From: Bradyrhizobium sp. RD5-C2
GTDB lineage: Bacteria > Pseudomonadota > Alphaproteobacteria > Rhizobiales > Xanthobacteraceae
NCBI RefSeq assembly: GCF_019972155.1
Contig: NZ_BOVL01000056.1
Span: 1-64,000 of the forward strand
Direction: 5' to 3'
DNA length: 64,000 nucleotides
The notes under the pieces are model-generated. The model was not told the origin of the DNA and did no database searches. It was given only the letters and a program-made list of their open reading frames with translations. The translations under genes and the position numbers were made by a program. Positions 9,356 through 16,470 of the stretch are shown here, piece after piece (within the stretch, counting starts at the first letter, position 1; each line of letters starts with the position of its first letter).

Positions 9356-10573
9356 TCAGGCGGCGCCGCGATCGAGCGCCGGCGTGGGGTCCTTTTGCGT
9401 CAGCCGGCGCAGGGCCGCAACGTTGGTGGCGACGGACGCCAGGCGGCACTGTGCCTTGCCGTCGGATTTGGCTTCATAGAGCGCGGCATCGGCAACGGCC
9501 AAAAGCTCCTCGGCCTCGGTGCCGTGCTCGGGCGAGACAGCGACGCCGACACTGACGCCGACCTTTGCGAAGATGCCGTCGGCCAGCCGGTAAGGCATCG
9601 TGACGGCCTGGATGATGCGCTGGCCGATCCCGAGTGCCTGCTCGGCGGTGACGCCGTTCGCCAGCACCACGAATTCATCGCCGCCGAGCCGCGCGATCAC
9701 CGAGGTCTCGGGTAGAGCGCGCCGCAGCCGCTCGGCAGCCAGCATCAGCACCTGGTCGCCGGCCGCATGGCCATAGGTGTCGTTGATTGGCTTGAAATTG
9801 TCGAGGTCGAGGAACAGCAGCGCGAACGGCCTGTCGTGTCCGGCCGGAGCCGTGAGCTTGGTGTTCAGCGCGGCGACGAAACCGGCGCGATTGCGCAGTC
9901 CGGTCAGGGTGTCGTGATGGGCAAGATGGCCGTTCTCGCGCTCGGCGCGCATGGTTGCGATCAGCATCTTGTTGAGGCGGAAGGCCGCGACCGTCATCGC
10001 CGCAAGATACATCGGCACCTGCAGGAACACGATGAAGAGCAGCGGCTCGTCGGCCAATGCCGCGCCGGGCACGATCGGGCCGAGGCTGAGCAAGATCATG
10101 GTGCCGGCAAGGCGCGGGGCGCTGAAGTTGCGAAAGCAGATGCCGCCGACCATCGCCGCCGCCGACAGCGAGGCCAGCATCGCAACCACCCAATCGCCGC
10201 TTGCAAGGCTGATCAGCATGCCGAAGCCGACGCTCGCGCTCCAGGCGACTGCGAGGACGAGGTGAAGATCGGTCGGCGTCGGCCGCCCCTCGCGTGCCGC
10301 GCGATGGGCAGCCACGAGCACCGACAGTCGCGAGAGGCAGATGACGAGTTCGAGGATGACCCAGGCGATGAACGGCGCGGTCGGCTCGCGGATCGCAATC
10401 ACGGCCGCGACGGCGACCGTATTGACCGCGCCGGCCGCGAACACCGGCAGTGAGCCATAGAGATCCCCGATCAGCGCCGCGCGGATGTCATCGGGCACGC
10501 CCGGACCCGCATCGGCGAGCCAGCGCGTCACGCCCCAGCGCGGCTGGCTGTATCGTCCTTTTTCGGACTGCAT
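9356..10573 (-). CDS. Membrane-bound diguanylate cyclase (GGDEF)
   Basis: A 405-residue protein making cyclic di-GMP. The N-terminal 215 residues hold about five or six membrane helices of no named sensor type. The GGDEF domain follows with HHDTLTGLRNR, DLDNFKPINDTYGH and an intact RLGGDEF at 295-301, so it should be active. The RxxD inhibitory site normally just upstream of GGDEF is absent (PETS instead), suggesting no product inhibition through the I-site. No EAL domain. It is convergent with the TPR gene, 44 bases apart. Confidence 0.9.
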   Translation of the reverse strand: MQSEKGRYSQPRWGVTRWLADAGPGVPDDIRAALIGDLYGSLPVFAAGAVNTVAVAAVIAIREPTAPFIAWVILELVICLSRLSVLVAAHRAAREGRPTPTDLHLVLAVAWSASVGFGMLISLASGDWVVAMLASLSAAAMVGGICFRNFSAPRLAGTMILLSLGPIVPGAALADEPLLFIVFLQVPMYLAAMTVAAFRLNKMLIATMRAERENGHLAHHDTLTGLRNRAGFVAALNTKLTAPAGHDRPFALLFLDLDNFKPINDTYGHAAGDQVLMLAAERLRRALPETSVIARLGGDEFVVLANGVTAEQALGIGQRIIQAVTMPYRLADGIFAKVGVSVGVAVSPEHGTEAEELLAVADAALYEAKSDGKAQCRLASVATNVAALRRLTQKDPTPALDRGAA

Positions 10574-10834: not shown

Positions 10835-11494
10835 TCAGACCGCCACCAGTTCGTCCGCGCGGCCCGCGCGCTTCGCTTTCTTCAGCTTGGCCGGCGCGAA
10901 CAGATTGCTTGCGGCGAGGCCCGCGGTGTCGGCGACCGTAGGGTCACATGACACCATGGCAGCGACAATGGCGCCGTCGATCAACAGCGCGAGCTGATGC
11001 GCGAGCACCGCCGGTTCGGTCGCGCCCATCTCGCCGGCGAGCTTCTCGATATGCGCCAGCACCACCTTCTTGTGCTTCAGCGCGATGTTGCGGAACTGCT
11101 TGGCGTCCTTGTCGTGCTCAGCGACCGCGTTGATGAACGGGCAGCCGTAGAAGCGTTCCTCGGCAAACCAGGTCTTGAGGGCAGGGAAGATCCGCGACAG
11201 CTTGGTCTGCGGATCGCCGCCGCCGGCCTCGATCGCACCGATGAACCACTCACGCCACTGCTTGCCTTCGCTTTCCAGCACGGCATGCACGAGGTTGGTC
11301 TTCGAGCCGAACAATTTGTAGAGCGTGGTCTTGGCGGTTCCGGCTTCGTCGATGATCGCATCGATGCCGGTGGCGTTGATGCCGTTCTTGCAGAACAGAT
11401 GCGTCGCCGCATTGAGCAGGCGCCCGCGCGCGGACTCGTCATCGCCGGCGGCGAACGCGGCGGCAGGTTTTTTCTTCACAAGCGATTTGGCCAT
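10835..11494 (-). CDS. TetR/AcrR-family repressor
   Basis: A 219-residue TetR-type regulator. The N-terminal helix-turn-helix is clear (RLLNAATHLFCKNGINATGIDAIIDEAGTAKTTLYKLFGSK, about residues 26-66), followed by a helical ligand domain with the CPFINAVAE segment common in one TetR group. The start at 11494 is chosen over upstream in-frame Met codons because it gives family-normal length. It is divergent from the OsmC-flavoprotein-rhodanese-cyanase operon and probably represses it (inference). A lysine- and arginine-rich C-terminal tail is present. Confidence 0.9.
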   Translation of the reverse strand: MAKSLVKKKPAAAFAAGDDESARGRLLNAATHLFCKNGINATGIDAIIDEAGTAKTTLYKLFGSKTNLVHAVLESEGKQWREWFIGAIEAGGGDPQTKLSRIFPALKTWFAEERFYGCPFINAVAEHDKDAKQFRNIALKHKKVVLAHIEKLAGEMGATEPAVLAHQLALLIDGAIVAAMVSCDPTVADTAGLAASNLFAPAKLKKAKRAGRADELVAV

Positions 11495-11712
11495 GCGCGG
11501 TAGTAAATCGGAGCGCGTCAAAATCATCAAGTCGCATCTTCACGGGGTCGGGCATGTGCGCCGTCCTGCGCTCAAAGTAATCGCGGCAGCGCGGCAGATG
11601 CACCGCGTTTGAGCAGCCGCGACCTGATCAATCCGCGGGCAGGCAGAGCTAACCGTCTGCGCGATTTCAGCTTTTGATTTGGCGGAGGACTGGCACGCTT
11701 CGTGCAGGAAAC

Positions 11713-11726
11713 AGACCGTTCGGTAT
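11713..11726. promoter_or_regulatory. Candidate TetR operator before the osmC-like operon
   Basis: AGACCGTTCGGTAT is a near-perfect palindrome (ACCG-TT-CGGT core) 35 bases upstream of the OsmC start, in the divergent region shared with the tetR-like gene. Short palindromes with this core are common TetR-family targets. Confidence 0.45.
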
Positions 11727-11761
11727 CCTTACCCAATCCATCGCTCCCAGGGAGAAAACTG

Positions 11762-12304
11762 ATGACCGCTGTCGCTCAAAAAACCGCACTGACCGGCTGC
11801 CTCGCGCCGATCGACAGGGGCGGGCTCGAGCAGCTGATCGCTAACGGCAAGGCCAACCCGAAGGTGATCAAGACCTTGAGGTGCAAGACGGTGGCGGAGG
11901 GCAAGTTCCGCCACGCCAACTACATCCGCAATCTCGCGCCCTACATCGTCGACGAGCCGCCGGGCCTGCTCGGCGATGACACCGCGCCCAATCCGTCGGA
12001 GGCCTCGCTCGCCGCGCTCGGCTCCTGCCTTGCGGTCGGCCTGCACGCCAACGCGGTGCATCGCGGCTGGATCGTCAACAAGCTCGAGCTGGAGCTCGAG
12101 GGCGATCTCAACATCACCGCGGTGTGGGGCACCGGCGACGTCAGCGAAAAGCCGGTCGGCTTCACCGATGTCCGCGTCAAGGTCGACATGGAATGCGAGG
12201 GCGTCGCGCAGAGCGAGATCGATGCGCTGGTGGCGCATGTGAAGAAGTGGTCGCCGGTCGCCAACACCTTCACCCGTCCCGTCAATCTCGAGGTCAGCGC
12301 GTAA
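11762..12304 (+). CDS. OsmC-family protein lacking one redox cysteine
   Basis: A 180-residue OsmC/Ohr-fold protein. The helix with the first conserved cysteine is seen (ALGSCLAVGLHANA), but the second peroxidase cysteine, expected in an ACPVSNT-like segment, is replaced (KKWSPVANTF). It is therefore probably not a two-cysteine peroxidase and may use a single thiol for sulfur or electrophile handling (inference). GGGAG lies upstream of ATG 11762. First gene of a four-gene plus-strand operon behind a divergent TetR gene; the next gene begins 35 bases after its stop. Confidence 0.85.
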   Translation: MTAVAQKTALTGCLAPIDRGGLEQLIANGKANPKVIKTLRCKTVAEGKFRHANYIRNLAPYIVDEPPGLLGDDTAPNPSEASLAALGSCLAVGLHANAVHRGWIVNKLELELEGDLNITAVWGTGDVSEKPVGFTDVRVKVDMECEGVAQSEIDALVAHVKKWSPVANTFTRPVNLEVSA

Positions 12305-12339
12305 GGCTCGACCGGCAATTCAAGGTGCGGAGACCAACC

Positions 12340-13467
12340 ATGGGTTCACTGGCTTTATCGCGGGTCGCAGCTCAAGATCCCGCACCGACCATTACGGACG
12401 AGGTCGCGCGCCTCGCTCGTCAGGAGCTGGCGCCGCTCGCATCCGCGATCGATGCCGGCTCGATCTATCCCGGCGAATTCCTGCGCCGGCTCGGCAAGAC
12501 CGGCGCGTGGAGCAGCCACGTGCCGCAGGAGGGCCCTGCCGACCTGCGCTGGGCGATCCAGTCGATGGCGGCGCTCGGCGAGATCTGCGGCGCCACCGCC
12601 TTCATGGCGTGGTGCCAGAACACGCTGGTCTGGTACGTCGCCAATTCCACCAACGTGAAGCTCGCCGCGCGCTTCGGCAACTGCTTCTCCAGCGGGCGTG
12701 CGCTCGGCGGCACCGGGCTCTCCAACCCGATGAAGAGCTTCTTCGGCATCGAGCGGCTGAAGCTGAAGGGCCGCAAGGTCGATGGCGGTTACGTCGTGCG
12801 CGGCGCGCTGCCCTGGGTGTCCAATCTCGGCCCCGACCACTACTTCGGCACGATCTTCGAGCGCGAGGACGAAGGCACCAACGGCGAGCCGGGCAGCACG
12901 GTCATGTTCCTTGCCGATTGCTCTGACCCCGCGATCACGCTGACGCCGTGCAAGCCGTTCCTGGCGATGGACGGCACCGGCACCTACAGCGTCCAGTTCC
13001 GCGACGTGTTCGTGCCTGACGAGCTGATCCTGGCCGAGCCGGCTGCGCCGTTCGTCAAGAAGGTCCGCGCCGGCTTCATCCTGCTGCAGACCGGCATGGG
13101 CCTCGGCCTGATGAGGGATTGCATCAACATCATGGACGAGGTCCATGCGCCGCTCGGTCACGTCAACCGCTATCTGCCGCAGCAGCCGGTGCAATTCCGC
13201 GAGCTCTATGCCGAGTTCGAGAAGGAGGCGATGACGCTGGCTAGCGATCCCTATAACGCCGACGACAGCTACTGGCGCCGCGTCGTCGCGCTGCGCCTGC
13301 GGATCGGCGATGCCAGTGTCGCGGTCGCGCATGCGGCGATGCTCCATTGCGGCGCGCGCGGCTATCTGATGAGCCATCGCGCACAGCGCAGACTGCGCGA
13401 AGCCTATTTCGTCGCCATCGTCACGCCTGCCACCAAGCAGCTGCGCAAGATGCTGGCGGACGGCTGA
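12340..13467 (+). CDS. Acyl-CoA dehydrogenase-like flavoprotein
   Basis: A 375-residue member of the acyl-CoA dehydrogenase superfamily, with the helical N-domain, beta-barrel middle domain and helical C-domain in order. The usual FAD-contact motif (ALTEP.AGSD) is altered to LGGTGLSNPMKSF, and the catalytic-Glu YEGT segment of true dehydrogenases is not visible. This points to the divergent group that includes flavin monooxygenases such as the DszC-like enzymes (inference). ATG 12340 is preceded by GCGGAG. Its place between OsmC and rhodanese genes suggests oxidation of a sulfur- or nitrogen-containing compound rather than fatty-acid oxidation. Confidence 0.8.
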   Translation: MGSLALSRVAAQDPAPTITDEVARLARQELAPLASAIDAGSIYPGEFLRRLGKTGAWSSHVPQEGPADLRWAIQSMAALGEICGATAFMAWCQNTLVWYVANSTNVKLAARFGNCFSSGRALGGTGLSNPMKSFFGIERLKLKGRKVDGGYVVRGALPWVSNLGPDHYFGTIFEREDEGTNGEPGSTVMFLADCSDPAITLTPCKPFLAMDGTGTYSVQFRDVFVPDELILAEPAAPFVKKVRAGFILLQTGMGLGLMRDCINIMDEVHAPLGHVNRYLPQQPVQFRELYAEFEKEAMTLASDPYNADDSYWRRVVALRLRIGDASVAVAHAAMLHCGARGYLMSHRAQRRLREAYFVAIVTPATKQLRKMLADG

Positions 13468-13513
13468 AGGAGTTTGGGACCACCACAACTGCAACCGCAA
13501 ACAGGAGAGAGCC

Positions 13514-14392
13514 ATGACGGACGTTCTGATCACCGCCGGCGAACTTGCCGAGCTCGTCAAGAAAGAGCCGTGTGTCATCATCGACACGCGGAATCCGGAT
13601 GCCTATGCGGCCGGCCATCTGCCCGGTGCCGTCAATGTGCATGACGTCTTCACGTTCCTCGCGACCTCGACGCCGGAGGGAATCCACGAACTGAAGACCA
13701 AATTCGCCGACGCCTTCGGCGCCGCCGGTCTCTCCGGCAAGGAGACCGCCGTGATCTACGAGCAGTCGATGAATTCCGGCTTCGGCCAGTCGTGCCGCGG
13801 CTACTACCTGCTGACGATGCTGGGTTATCCCAAGATCAAGGTGTTGCATGGTGGCTTCGATGCCTGGAAGGCCGCCGACCTTCCGGTTACCACCGACGTC
13901 GCGGTTCCGGCGAAGGCCTCCTTTGCGATCGTGCCGGAAGCCGGCGACATCATGATCGACGCCAAGGCGATGCTGGCCGCGGTCGGCAAGCCCGGCGTCG
14001 CGATCCTCGATGTGCGCGACGTCGACGAGTGGATCGGCGATAGCTCCTCGCCCTACGGCAAGGATTTCTGCCCGCGCAAGGGCCGCATCCCCGGCGCCGT
14101 CTGGCTGGAATGGTACCGGATGATGAAGCCGACCGGCGAAGGCCCGCGCTTCAAGTCCAAGGACGAGATCCTGGCGGAGTGCGCCACCGTCGGCATCTCG
14201 CAGACCACGCCGGTCTATCTCTACTGCTTCAAGGGCGCGCGCGCCTCGAACACCTTCCTGGCGCTGAAGAACGCCGGCGTGAAGGACGTGCGGATGTACT
14301 TCGGCTCGTGGAACGAGTGGTCGCGCGACCCGGCGCTGCCGATCGACGAGGGCCTGCCGACCGCTGCCGTCGTCACAGGCAAGGCGGCATAG
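13514..14392 (+). CDS. Tandem-domain rhodanese (sulfurtransferase)
   Basis: A 292-residue protein with two rhodanese domains. The N-domain (about 5-130) has VIIDTRNPDAYAAGHLPGA but a non-catalytic loop. The C-domain (about 145-285) has ILDVRDVDEW and the active-site loop with Cys238 in YCFKGARAS. Such enzymes move sulfane sulfur from thiosulfate or mercaptopyruvate to cyanide or thiols. No export signal is seen, so it is probably cytoplasmic. AGGAGAG precedes ATG 13514. Third gene of the operon, followed by cyanase, which links sulfur transfer to cyanide/cyanate chemistry. Confidence 0.9.
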   Translation: MTDVLITAGELAELVKKEPCVIIDTRNPDAYAAGHLPGAVNVHDVFTFLATSTPEGIHELKTKFADAFGAAGLSGKETAVIYEQSMNSGFGQSCRGYYLLTMLGYPKIKVLHGGFDAWKAADLPVTTDVAVPAKASFAIVPEAGDIMIDAKAMLAAVGKPGVAILDVRDVDEWIGDSSSPYGKDFCPRKGRIPGAVWLEWYRMMKPTGEGPRFKSKDEILAECATVGISQTTPVYLYCFKGARASNTFLALKNAGVKDVRMYFGSWNEWSRDPALPIDEGLPTAAVVTGKAA

Positions 14393-14491
14393 AATCTGCA
14401 TGTTTGCTGGCGTCCGGCGGCGTAAAATGCGGCCGGACGCCGATCAATGCCGGTGTCGGCACGGCGCGCCGATCCGCAAGGAGGAAGCCTC

Positions 14492-14980
14492 ATGAAACGC
14501 GAAGACCTCACCGAAAAGCTGCTCGACATCAAGCGCGAGAAGGGCTGGAGCTGGAAGCATATCTGCGAGAAGATCGGCGGCTATTCCGAGGTCCTGATCG
14601 TGGGTGCGATCCTCGGCCAGATGAAGCTGACAAAACCGCAGGCGGCCAATGCCGGCGAGCTGTTCGGGTTGTCGAAGGCCGAGACCGCGATGCTCAACGA
14701 GGTGCCGATGCGCGGCGCCGGCACGCCGATGCCGCCGACCGATCCGCTGATCTATCGCTTCTACGAGATGGTGATGGTCAACGGCCCAGCGTGGAAGGCG
14801 CTGATCGAGGAAGAATTCGGCGATGGCATCATGTCGGCGATCGACTTCGACATGGCGATGGAGCGTGTAGCCAATCCGAAGGGCGACCGCGTCAAGATCA
14901 CGATGTCAGGCAAGTTCCTGCCGTACAAATATTACGGCGCCAGCGGGAACGTGCCGGAATACGGCTTCAAGGAAGACTGA
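14492..14980 (+). CDS. cynS: Cyanate hydratase (cyanase)
   Basis: A 162-residue cyanase, which converts cyanate and bicarbonate to ammonia and carbon dioxide (via carbamate) as a decamer in the cytoplasm. The catalytic residues correspond to Arg89 and Glu92 (YRFYE) and Ser115 (GIMSAI), matching Arg96, Glu99 and Ser122 of the E. coli enzyme. The C-terminus runs about ten residues past the usual GKFLPYK end. A strong AAGGAGGA site precedes ATG 14492. Last gene of the operon; a shared hairpin follows. Confidence 0.95.
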   Translation: MKREDLTEKLLDIKREKGWSWKHICEKIGGYSEVLIVGAILGQMKLTKPQAANAGELFGLSKAETAMLNEVPMRGAGTPMPPTDPLIYRFYEMVMVNGPAWKALIEEEFGDGIMSAIDFDMAMERVANPKGDRVKITMSGKFLPYKYYGASGNVPEYGFKED

Positions 14981-15039: not shown

Positions 15040-16470
15040 CTACAGGATCGTACCCGGCGCGTAGCTCGCCGCTTCCGGCTTGGCCCGGGCGAGCGCGTCG
15101 ACTTGCTCGGCGAAATAATCGACCTGGGCGCCGGCGTCGCCGGAGTTGGCGCGACCTTGCGCGAGCACGAGCTGCAATTCGCTTTCGCTCAAGCCGAGCC
15201 GTTGGTCGGCGGCGAGACGCTGCAGCAGATCGTTCTGCACAATCTTGCCGGTGCGCAGGTCGCCGATGGCGGCGACGGCGTGCTCCTTGATAGCCTCGTG
15301 GGCGCCTTCGCGGCCGGCGCCCTTCTTGACCGCTTCCATCATCACCGTGGTGGTCAGCAGGAAGGGCAGATAGCGGTTGAGCTCGGTCGCGACGACGGCT
15401 TCGAACACCTCCATCTGATCGAGCACGGTGAGCAGGGTTTCGAGCAAGCCATCCATGGCGAGGAAGGCATCCGGCAGCATGACGCGGCGGACGACCGAGC
15501 AGGAGACGTCGCCTTCGTTCCACTGATCGCCGGCGAGCCCGGAGGCCATGGCGAGATAGCCCTTCAGGATCACATGCAGGCCATTGATGCGCTCGCAGGA
15601 GCGGCTGTTCATCTTGTGCGGCATGGCCGAGGACCCGACCTGGCCCTTGGCAAAACCTTCACTGGCGAGTTCGTGGCCCGCCATCAGGCGGATGGTCTTG
15701 GCGAAGTTGCCGGGACCGCTGGCGAGCTCGGTGAGCACGCTGACCGCACGGAAGTCGAGGCTGCGCGGATACACCTGGCCGACGGCGTCGAGCGCTTTCG
15801 GCAAGCCGAGGTGAACGAGGATGCGCTCCTCGAGCGCGCGCGCCTTGCCGGCATCGCCATTGAACAAGGTGATCTGGTCGAGACGGGTGCCCACTGCGCC
15901 CTTCAGGCCGCGCGCGGGGTAGGTCTGCAGCACGTTGACCAGGCTCTGATGCGCCAGCAGCATCTCTTCGCCTGACATGGCGATGCGCTTGCCGAGCGTC
16001 GTGACCTGCGCAGCGACGTTGTGGGTGCGCGCGGTGAACGGGATGTCGCGCAATTGCTGCGCGCGCTTCGCAAACCGAATCAGCGCGGCGATGCTCTTGG
16101 TCTCGACCAGCTGCAACGCGCGGTAGACCTGCAGCTGTTCGACGTTTTCGGTGAGGTCGCGGCTGGTCATGCCCTTGTGCAGGTGCTCGTGACCGGCCAG
16201 ATCGCAGAACTCCTCGATGCGCGCCTTGACGTCGTGGCGGGTGACGCGCTCGCGCTGCATGATGGAGGCCAGGTTGATCTGGTCCTTGACGCGCTCGTAG
16301 CTTTCGATCACGCCGTCCGGAACCGGAATCCCGAGATCGCGCTGGCCCTTCAGCACGGCGATCCAGTAGTCGCGTTCGAGGCGAACCTTGCCCTCGCCAC
16401 TCCAGATGGCGCGCATGGCGGGTGAGGCATAACGTTCAGCGAGAACGTTGGAAATGTGATCCTGGGACAT
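15040..16470 (-). CDS. purB: Adenylosuccinate lyase-type enzyme, first copy
   Basis: A 476-residue lyase of the fumarase/aspartase superfamily. It shows HNVAAQVTTLGKR, TSRDLTENVEQ and the signature loop SSAMPHKMNSRSCERI, the form found in the animal-type adenylosuccinate lyases. Expected reactions are release of fumarate from SAICAR and from adenylosuccinate in purine synthesis. The start at 16470 (MSQDHISN) is supported by GCGGGA and family length. A second, different PurB lies at 61906-63213, so the two may divide roles or one may act on another substrate. Convergent with the cyanase operon. Confidence 0.85.
   Translation of the reverse strand: MSQDHISNVLAERYASPAMRAIWSGEGKVRLERDYWIAVLKGQRDLGIPVPDGVIESYERVKDQINLASIMQRERVTRHDVKARIEEFCDLAGHEHLHKGMTSRDLTENVEQLQVYRALQLVETKSIAALIRFAKRAQQLRDIPFTARTHNVAAQVTTLGKRIAMSGEEMLLAHQSLVNVLQTYPARGLKGAVGTRLDQITLFNGDAGKARALEERILVHLGLPKALDAVGQVYPRSLDFRAVSVLTELASGPGNFAKTIRLMAGHELASEGFAKGQVGSSAMPHKMNSRSCERINGLHVILKGYLAMASGLAGDQWNEGDVSCSVVRRVMLPDAFLAMDGLLETLLTVLDQMEVFEAVVATELNRYLPFLLTTTVMMEAVKKGAGREGAHEAIKEHAVAAIGDLRTGKIVQNDLLQRLAADQRLGLSESELQLVLAQGRANSGDAGAQVDYFAEQVDALARAKPEAASYAPGTIL

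What the first reader, a model, noticed from the sequence alone, without database searches (positions are those of the whole stretch)
10835..14980. TetR-controlled OsmC, flavoprotein, rhodanese and cyanase operon
A four-gene run joins an OsmC protein with one redox Cys, an acyl-CoA-dehydrogenase-like flavoprotein without the normal FAD and Glu motifs, a tandem rhodanese and cyanase, behind a TetR gene with a palindromic site at 11713-11726. Cyanase and rhodanese act on cyanate and on sulfane sulfur/cyanide. Together with an oxidative flavoprotein this suggests breakdown of a C-N-S compound such as thiocyanate, isothiocyanate or an organic nitrile or thiocyanate, with cyanate as the product. 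I know of no described pathway with this exact gene set.
Basis: inference. Interest (0 to 1): 0.68.

Follow-up and report, generated by a model that had tools for sequence, protein, structure and literature searches.

The report
Conserved OsmC-flavoprotein-rhodanese-cyanase operon
A small regulated gene set in a soil bacterium, found in fuller form in other bacteria, looks like an undescribed enzyme route that may break a sulphur-carbon-nitrogen compound, perhaps thiocyanate, into cyanate and reactive sulphur and then into ammonia.

Summary
The genes are real: divergent TetR, then OsmC, an acyl-CoA-dehydrogenase-fold (ACAD) flavoprotein, tandem rhodanese and cyanase. TetR-OsmC-ACAD-rhodanese sat together in 26 of 26 loci, the window's included. 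The palindrome is a conserved operator-like site.

The four-gene run is not the ancestral set. Relatives carry a NrtABC-type ABC transporter between rhodanese and cyanase; here and in eight other Bradyrhizobium loci it was lost by one shared ~3.35-kb deletion. The rest stays under purifying selection.

Farther out, ACAD with OsmC recurs in alpha-, beta- and gammaproteobacteria with NrtA/SsuA-type transporters, rubredoxin or ferredoxin reductases, cyanase, and either rhodanese or a persulfide dioxygenase: of 99 loci 80 had rhodanese, 7 a dioxygenase, none both, 12 neither; 65 had cyanase. The ACAD lacks the usual catalytic glutamate.

Best reading (inferred): oxidation of a small C-N-S anion, most likely thiocyanate, to cyanate plus sulfane sulfur by a flavoprotein instead of copper thiocyanate dehydrogenase. 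Nothing was shown biochemically; cyanide oxidation and organosulfur scavenging remain open. Ten searches of open-licence papers listed none describing this cluster.

The parts
10835..11494 (-). TetR-family repressor, divergent to the operon
   Evidence: TetR_N 8e-13; beside OsmC in 26 of 26 loci, the window's included
11711..11726 (.). operator-like palindrome ACAGACCGTTCGGTAT, ending 35 bp before the OsmC start
   Evidence: only place in the window at up to 2 mismatches; near-invariant in Bradyrhizobium, perfect palindrome in Xanthobacter; binding not tested
11762..12304 (+). one-Cys OsmC-like protein (Cys89 kept, Ser164 where the second Cys is expected)
   Evidence: OsmC 1e-18; C89, E65 and S164 in 95 of 95 rows
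12340..13467 (+). ACAD-fold flavoprotein without the usual catalytic Glu; proposed oxidising enzyme
   Evidence: 25 of 36 genus genomes
13514..14392 (+). tandem-domain rhodanese (sulfurtransferase), active-site loop CFKGAR
   Evidence: Rhodanese 2e-36, two stretches; Cys238 in 81 of 82 rows
14450..14463 (.). deletion scar: relatives have SBP-permease-ATPase (NrtABC-type, about 3.35 kb) here
   Evidence: window 14300-14449 matches L028 10163-10312 and 14464-14600 matches L028 13662-13796; same scar in 8 of 8 other short-form loci
14492..14980 (+). cyanase CynS
   Evidence: NF002773 6e-66 and TIGR00673 1.5e-44, both over cut-off; R89, E92 and S115 in 66 of 66 rows

Best explanation
The operon is the shortened form of a widespread, undescribed pathway that oxidises a small C-N-S compound, most likely thiocyanate, to cyanate plus sulfane sulfur. 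Proposed steps: (1) an NrtABC-type ABC transporter imports the anion (present in most relatives, deleted here, so this strain must rely on another importer or an internal source). (2) The ACAD-fold flavoprotein, reduced by a rubredoxin or ferredoxin reductase encoded in the cluster in some groups, activates O2 and oxidises the sulfur. (3) The single Cys of OsmC takes the oxidised S-CN group and releases cyanate, leaving a persulfide. (4) Rhodanese, or a persulfide dioxygenase with a TauE-type exporter in other bacteria, removes the sulfane sulfur. (5) Cyanase turns cyanate into ammonia and CO2. TetR at the conserved palindrome controls the unit. Shown here: gene content, conservation, conserved palindrome, deletion, states of catalytic residues. 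From family knowledge: cyanase and rhodanese chemistry. Inferred: substrate, transport, TetR binding, and steps 2 and 3.
For: Linkage: TetR-OsmC-ACAD-Rhod in 26 of 26 loci, the window's included. Cyanase 1.3-18.7 kb downstream in 23 of 23 testable genus genomes, 22 of 23 within 10 kb; two further ACAD genomes have the genes on separate short contigs and are not testable.

The transporter tracks the ACAD module, not cyanase alone: the ATPase sits beside CynS in 19 of 20 scored ACAD-positive genus genomes (the exception is the window's) and in 2 of 9 scored ACAD-negative ones, Fisher p=1.7e-4. Seven of 36 genus genomes had no cyanase locus fetched and were not scored; the five ACAD-positive ones among them show the ATPase cluster.

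Recurrence far away: Marinobacter ATPase-SBP-permease-sigma54-OsmC-ACAD-reductase-cynS; Acetobacter OsmC-ACAD-rubredoxin reductase-NrtA-NrtB-ATPase-cynS; Caballeronia the same kind plus an ETHE1-type persulfide dioxygenase; a Methylobacterium-like genome NifA-like-OsmC-ACAD-rubredoxin reductase-persulfide dioxygenase-TauE-NrtABC-cynS on one strand (L257); Xanthobacter with rhodanese and a ferredoxin-reductase-like gene.

Sulfane-sulfur enzymes swap: 80 of 99 rhodanese, 7 of 99 persulfide dioxygenase, 0 both, 12 neither. Two subtypes of transporter fill the same slot before cynS (L117 against L104).

Genome level: cyanase in 13 of 16 ACAD-positive (own genome included) against 57 of 382 ACAD-negative genomes, p=2e-8; without the window's family 6 of 9 against 53 of 377, p=6e-4. 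On the ACAD tree the cyanase label needs at least 7 changes on well supported branches.

Purifying selection on all five genes against 7 of the 8 other short-form loci (dN/dS 0.024-0.168).
Against: No biochemistry; the substrate is inferred from neighbours only. 12 of 99 loci have neither rhodanese nor dioxygenase, 34 of 99 no cyanase and 23 of 99 no SBP within about 9.5 kb, some because contigs end (with at least 7.5 kb downstream 60 of 85 have cyanase and 65 of 85 an SBP). Three of 16 ACAD-positive genomes have no cyanase match. Three of the five Methylobacterium-like clusters closest to L187 (L253, L254, L255) have no cyanase in the stretch read, a fourth (L256) is cut off. Some clusters are only transporter-OsmC-ACAD or AhpD-ACAD-transporter, which suggests a broader or different substrate for the wider family. 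Bradyrhizobium clusters carry no reductase. The NrtA-type transporter could import cyanate itself. The window strain has lost the transporter. The genome-level test is corrected for phylogeny only by dropping one family.
Confidence: 0.42

Rival explanations
1. Cyanide oxidation: the flavoprotein is the gene behind the reported 'cyanide monooxygenase' activity (cyanide to cyanate), rhodanese is a second cyanide sink (to thiocyanate), and cyanase finishes the job.
For: A cyanide monooxygenase-cyanase route through cyanate is described in PMC5778177 (passages). Rhodanese with cyanase fits cyanide. Reductases in some clusters fit a monooxygenase.
Against: HCN crosses membranes (general knowledge) and should need no ABC importer, yet a NrtA/SsuA-type SBP is nearby in 76 of 99 loci. 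Persulfide dioxygenase and TauE dispose of sulfane sulfur and sulfite, which cyanide would consume, not make.
Confidence: 0.14
2. Sulfur scavenging from organosulfur compounds: the family is an SfnB/DszC-like oxidoreductase with its own importer, and cyanase is linked because cyanate is a side product or through shared nitrogen/sulfur-limitation control.
For: Distant members score below cut-off on SfnB (two of them) and DszC (one) models. A ~30% identical member with an ABC transporter sits on the Synechococcus plasmid that carries srpI and cysteine-synthesis genes, described as encoding many sulfur-related genes, srpI being induced by sulfur starvation (PMC8049743, passages). Transporter-OsmC-ACAD clusters without cyanase exist.
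Against: The window protein has no SfnB or DszC match at E 0.1 or better. Cyanase linkage recurs on several branches of the ACAD tree. The SBP of L187, 71% identical to the Bradyrhizobium one, matches nitrate and bicarbonate SBPs best among solved structures, and the L028 permease passes the NtrB cut-off.
Confidence: 0.22
3. Plain cyanate assimilation (cynABDS) with an unrelated redox/thiol-stress unit parked next to it.
For: cynF-cynABDS clusters for cyanate are known (PMC6627978, section 2.1 read). Cyanase is in 36 of 36 genus genomes, the ACAD in only 25. In Tardiphaga-like loci the ACAD unit stands without them, and in G702 the two units lie on different contigs.
Against: In the genus the transporter is kept with the ACAD module and mostly absent where the ACAD is absent. 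The same combination recurs in Marinobacter, Acetobacter, Caballeronia and Methylobacterium-like genomes with different transporters and regulators.
Confidence: 0.14
4. The rhodanese-cyanase adjacency in the window is only a by-product of the deletion, with no shared control.
For: The adjacency was made by the 3.35-kb deletion.
Against: Cyanase is downstream of the ACAD in 23 of 23 testable genus genomes, and the genes on both sides of the scar are under purifying selection in short-form genomes.
Confidence: 0.08

Closest known systems
cynF-cynABDS cyanate assimilation cluster (Pseudomonas pseudoalcaligenes CECT5344)
   Same: NrtA-type SBP, permease, ATPase, cyanase in that order in relatives; a PAS-sigma54 regulator beside it in some
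   Different: adds TetR, OsmC, ACAD flavoprotein and rhodanese; the window has lost the transporter
Cyanate pathway of thiocyanate oxidation (thiocyanate dehydrogenase, Thioalkalivibrio)
   Same: proposed conversion of thiocyanate to cyanate and sulfane sulfur, then cyanase
   Different: the known key enzyme is a copper enzyme using cytochrome c (PMC5778177, passages); here a flavoprotein of the ACAD fold is proposed
ACAD-fold oxidoreductases of sulfur compounds (SfnB, DszC)
   Same: distant members of the family score weakly on these models
   Different: the window protein does not match them; linked to OsmC, cyanase and reductases
OsmC/Ohr thiol peroxidases
   Same: OsmC domain, Cys89 and Glu65 kept
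   Different: expected second Cys is Ser in 95 of 95 rows; only solved relative by sequence at E 0.01 is 2opl; only NCBIfam match, below cut-off, is OsmC-related (seleno)protein

Membership tests
Cyanase (CynS) | cyanase model over curated cut-off | tested here: met
   NF002773 221 bits (cut-off 150), TIGR00673 151.6 (113.3)
Cyanase (CynS) | catalytic Arg, Glu, Ser (E. coli R96, E99, S122, recalled) | tested here: met
   R89, E92, S115 in 66 of 66 rows
Rhodanese | two rhodanese domains with a C-terminal active-site Cys loop | tested here: met
   Cys238 in 81 of 82 rows
Two-Cys OsmC/Ohr peroxidase | second (resolving) Cys | tested here: not met
   Ser164 in 95 of 95 rows at the place expected for it (position recalled)
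Two-Cys OsmC/Ohr peroxidase | OsmC domain with peroxidatic Cys and Glu | tested here: met
   OsmC 1e-18; C89, E65 in 95 of 95
Acyl-CoA dehydrogenase (true enzyme) | ACAD fold | tested here: met
   model pLDDT 88.9; 4kto_A Z 40.1, rmsd 2.8 over 349 residues, 17% identity
Acyl-CoA dehydrogenase (true enzyme) | catalytic Glu in the C-terminal EGTSE-type stretch | tested here: not met
   alignment to SCAD; V-T-P-A instead, T362 and P363 in 21 of 21 rows. Some ACADs carry their base elsewhere (recalled), which was not tested
Acyl-CoA dehydrogenase (true enzyme) | acyl-CoA substrate and ETF partner | not testable with these tools
   no ligand or complex test available
SfnB / DszC flavin monooxygenases | family model over curated cut-off | tested here: not met
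   no match for the window protein; SfnB 46.5 and 39.3 bits against 430.9, DszC 36.9 against 850, for distant members
cynABDS cyanate uptake cluster | NrtA-type SBP, permease and ATPase next to cynS | tested here: not met
   absent in the window through a deletion; SBP ortholog not elsewhere in the genome, best paralog 38%. SBP within about 9.5 kb of the ACAD in 57 of 76 named relatives tallied
TetR-controlled operon | conserved palindrome between divergent tetR and first gene | tested here: met
   binding itself not tested
Thiocyanate cyanate pathway | thiocyanate oxidised to cyanate by an enzyme of the cluster | not testable with these tools
   needs an enzyme assay

The most novel reading that the evidence does not exclude
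A third biochemical route for thiocyanate: an ACAD-fold flavoprotein, fed by a rubredoxin or ferredoxin reductase, oxidises imported thiocyanate on sulfur, and a one-Cys OsmC acts as a persulfide carrier that splits off cyanate. It would be a genetic basis for thiocyanate use as a nitrogen source by aerobic heterotrophs such as Methylobacterium.
Probability: 0.3. Interest if true: 0.85.

Novelty: new variant of a known kind. Interest (0 to 1): 0.62.

Why it matters
Two routes for thiocyanate are described, thiocyanate hydrolase (carbonyl sulfide) and copper thiocyanate dehydrogenase (cyanate) (PMC5328954 and PMC5778177, passages). Heterotrophs including Methylobacterium are reported to use thiocyanate as nitrogen source (PMC5328954, passage). 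The cluster gives a concrete, testable gene set, present in cultivable genera (Xanthobacter, Bradyrhizobium, Acetobacter, Marinobacter, Caballeronia and probably Methylobacterium). If true it would also give a function to a family now annotated as 'acyl-CoA dehydrogenase family protein' and to its one-Cys OsmC partner, and be useful for cleaning thiocyanate waste.

Tried and rejected
Considered and rejected: (a) chance four-gene neighbours: rejected by 26 of 26 loci and the distant clusters. (b) The four-gene set as the ancestral pathway: rejected, the scar shows a deletion. (c) Transporter moved elsewhere in the genome: not found, best paralog 38% (SBP only was searched). (d) Normal acyl-CoA dehydrogenase: fold yes, catalytic Glu no. 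(e) Structure search to name a substrate: the 50 rows shown in each are ACAD-fold enzymes, mostly acyl-CoA dehydrogenases, so it gave no substrate; families not listed there are not excluded. (f) Organic nitrile as substrate: judged less likely because of the anion-type transporter; no search for nitrilase or nitrile hydratase was made.

Led nowhere or weak: promoter/terminator scan at chance level. Taxonomy look-up of SYSU XM002 gave only the order. Methylobacterium identity of the unnamed genus g28 is inferred from an 83% DNA match, over 26% of the query, to a M. aquaticum plasmid. The 2008 pANL paper is not held. Thiocyanate dehydrogenase and thiocyanate hydrolase were not searched for in this genome.

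Literature searches behind the statement that no such cluster was listed: (open-licence papers only). Seen: PMC6627978 passages and section 2.1; PMC5328954, PMC5778177, PMC8561711, PMC8049743, PMC5596200 passages; all others search listing only. PMC5596200 holds three of the terms, but in unrelated places.

Rows dropped or doubled: five of 105 loci had no ACAD ORF called and left the tally (L113, L116, L162, L177, L186). L191 is the same locus as L123 (identical ACAD and contig length) and was taken out, hence 99. In the operator count 6 of 101 regions are repeats (95 distinct). L109 counts as without rhodanese although a fragment is there. Only 80 of 422 genome-contig relatives were kept by the tool, so close relatives of its first query sequence are over-represented. 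Conservation rows still include L191.
Full report
What is there. The window (contig C56 of an unnamed 8.26-Mb genome; Bradyrhizobium by its named nearest relatives) holds a divergent TetR gene and four co-directed genes: OsmC, an ACAD-like flavoprotein, a tandem rhodanese and cyanase, with gaps of 35, 46 and 99 bp. The palindrome ends 35 bp before the OsmC start, fits one place in the window, is near-invariant in Bradyrhizobium (exact core in 67 of 101 intergenic regions, one base off in six more) and is a perfect palindrome in Xanthobacter. Four distant loci of 21 scanned had no such site (L184, L188, L226, L227).

The run is a reduced form. ACAD orthologs (E up to 1e-20) occur in 25 of 36 genomes of the genus examined, the window's included, and in none of the 24 other genomes. 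All 26 ACAD loci read (25 of the genus and L027 of another family) had TetR, OsmC and rhodanese in the same order. In relatives an SBP, a permease and an ATPase lie between rhodanese and cyanase; the L028 permease passes the NtrB cut-off and the ATPase falls just short of the NtrCD one, and the SBP is NMT1_2. The window matches both sides of this insert and lacks the 3.35 kb between; the SBP ortholog is not elsewhere in the genome. Eight named Bradyrhizobium loci (L137, L141, L142, L144, L147, L161, L165, L176) share the short form and the same scar. One inherited deletion is the simplest reading. All five genes are under purifying selection against seven of these eight, dN/dS 0.024-0.168 (L141 not run).

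Linkage statistics. Cyanase is in 36 of 36 genus genomes. In the 23 genomes with ACAD and cyanase on one contig, cyanase lies downstream at 1.3-18.7 kb, 22 of 23 within 10 kb; two ACAD genomes (G033, G035) could not be tested because of short contigs. The ATPase beside cyanase is present in 19 of 20 scored ACAD-positive and 2 of 9 scored ACAD-negative genus genomes (p=1.7e-4; a fragment in G012 counted as absent; 7 of 36 not scored). The transporter therefore follows the ACAD module rather than cyanase, which argues that it brings in the substrate of the module. In a phylum-wide draw, 13 of 16 ACAD-positive (E up to 1e-40, own genome included) and 57 of 382 ACAD-negative genomes have cyanase (p=2e-8; without the window's family 6 of 9 against 53 of 377, p=6e-4). 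This is not fully corrected for kinship.

Distant clusters. Named records: Marinobacter shengliensis plasmid, ATPase-SBP-permease-sigma54 regulator-OsmC-ACAD-FAD reductase-cynS. Acetobacter ascendens plasmid, OsmC-ACAD-rubredoxin (reductase fusion by length and match)-NrtA-NrtB-ATPase-cynS. Caballeronia plasmid, NifA-like-OsmC-ACAD-rubredoxin reductase-SBP-permease-ATPase-cynS-ETHE1-type persulfide dioxygenase. Xanthobacter, OsmC-ACAD-rhodanese-DSBA-family protein-ferredoxin-reductase-like-SBP-permease-ATPase-cynS. Rhodoblastus, the same slot filled by another transporter subtype. Rhodobacteraceae SC52, transporter-OsmC-ACAD-sulfurtransferase-reductase, without cyanase in the stretch. Unnamed Methylobacterium-like genomes: NifA-like-OsmC-ACAD-rubredoxin reductase-persulfide dioxygenase-TauE-NrtABC-cynS on one strand in L257. 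L187 is similar, without TauE and with a PAS-sigma54 gene between, and its dioxygenase matches the Blh dioxygenase half (1.6e-114, below the cut-off of the longer two-domain model) and solved relatives 4ysk and 4efz. L253 and L254 have dioxygenase and TauE but no cyanase in the stretch, L254 also no permease or ATPase; L256 is cut off after the SBP; L255 has neither dioxygenase nor cyanase. Moraxella osloensis has an AhpD-type protein instead of OsmC, and no cyanase listed in the stretch. Methylocystis, G603 and G569 have only transporter-OsmC-ACAD. L259 shows no recognised partner.

Tally. Of 105 loci with gene calls, 100 had a called ACAD; one was a repeat, leaving 99. Within about 9.5 kb: OsmC 93, AhpD-type 3, rhodanese 80, persulfide dioxygenase 7, both 0, neither 12, SBP of either subtype 76, cyanase 65, rubredoxin reductase 12. 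76 of the 99 come from the named scan and are mostly close relatives, so these are not independent. On a thinned tree of 39 ACADs the cyanase label needs 9 changes, at least 7 on well supported branches. That tells of repeated gain or loss; some loci are cut off by contig ends.

The proteins. OsmC keeps Cys89 and Glu65 in 95 of 95 rows, with Ser164 where the second Cys is expected. Rhodanese Cys238 is in 81 of 82, cyanase R89/E92/S115 in 66 of 66. The ACAD model (pLDDT 88.9) has the full ACAD fold (Z about 40 to isovaleryl-CoA dehydrogenases), but V-T-P-A replaces the catalytic-Glu stretch, while W-V-S-N is kept. So it should bind flavin but not do ordinary acyl-CoA dehydrogenation (inference).

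How it most likely works. Sulfane-sulfur enzymes of three kinds (rhodanese, Blh-type and ETHE1-type dioxygenases) stand in for one another, a cyanate enzyme recurs, an anion-type importer is present in about three quarters of the loci, and reductases recur. The simplest compound that gives both cyanate and sulfane sulfur on oxidation and needs an anion importer is thiocyanate (inference). I propose flavin-dependent S-oxidation, transfer of the oxidised S-CN group to the OsmC Cys, release of cyanate, and sulfur removal by rhodanese. Transport, S-oxidation and OsmC chemistry are inferred; the final cyanase and rhodanese steps rest on family knowledge.

Limits. No expression or biochemical data. 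The wider family includes members without cyanase or sulfur enzymes, among them a ~30% identical one beside an ABC transporter on the Synechococcus elongatus plasmid with srpI, a plasmid said to encode many sulfur-related genes (PMC8049743, passages; whether this gene is sulfur-regulated I did not see). The general role of the family may be oxidation of sulfur compounds, with thiocyanate as one case. Cyanide oxidation and simple cyanate use remain possible.

Comparison with print. Known cyanate clusters are cynFABDS (PMC6627978, section 2.1). Known thiocyanate routes are the hydrolase and the copper dehydrogenase (PMC5328954, PMC5778177, passages). Ten searches of open-licence papers listed none that appears to join these genes; the one with three matching words was checked and is unrelated. 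The gene set is best called a new variant of a known kind: a cyanate-forming pathway with a new type of front enzyme.

Noticed in passing
L262:11301-15760 (Synechococcus elongatus PCC 7942 plasmid): A ~30% identical ACAD-like gene with a DUF4242 gene before it and an ABC transporter after it, on the plasmid with srpI, serine acetyltransferase and two cysteine synthase genes. Suggests a wider sulfur-scavenging family.
   Followed up: partly
L263:6393-10831, L264:6377-10838, L189:6108-10938, L225:8169-15209: AhpD-type (CMD) proteins take the place of OsmC beside the ACAD-like gene, with the same kind of ABC transporter.
   Followed up: partly
search tables only: Two Neisseria gonorrhoeae records hold a 38-40% identical unannotated ACAD-like stretch; context not read.
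   Followed up: no
L104:12126-12746, L117:11990-12589, L140:12023-12634, L261:9911-10516: A DSBA-family protein (Pfam for L104 and L117; annotated 2-hydroxychromene-2-carboxylate isomerase in L261) sits right after rhodanese in several clusters, hinting at glutathione chemistry.
   Followed up: partly
L119, L123, L128, L133 (Tardiphaga and kin): TetR-OsmC-ACAD-rhodanese without the cyanase or its transporter in the 21-kb loci; in G702 (L191) cyanase with NrtABC and a PAS-sigma54 regulator lies on another contig.
   Followed up: partly
window 9356-10573 (-) and 15040-16416 (-): Flanking genes look unrelated (GGDEF-type protein upstream, adenylosuccinate-lyase-like downstream, by eye).
   Followed up: no
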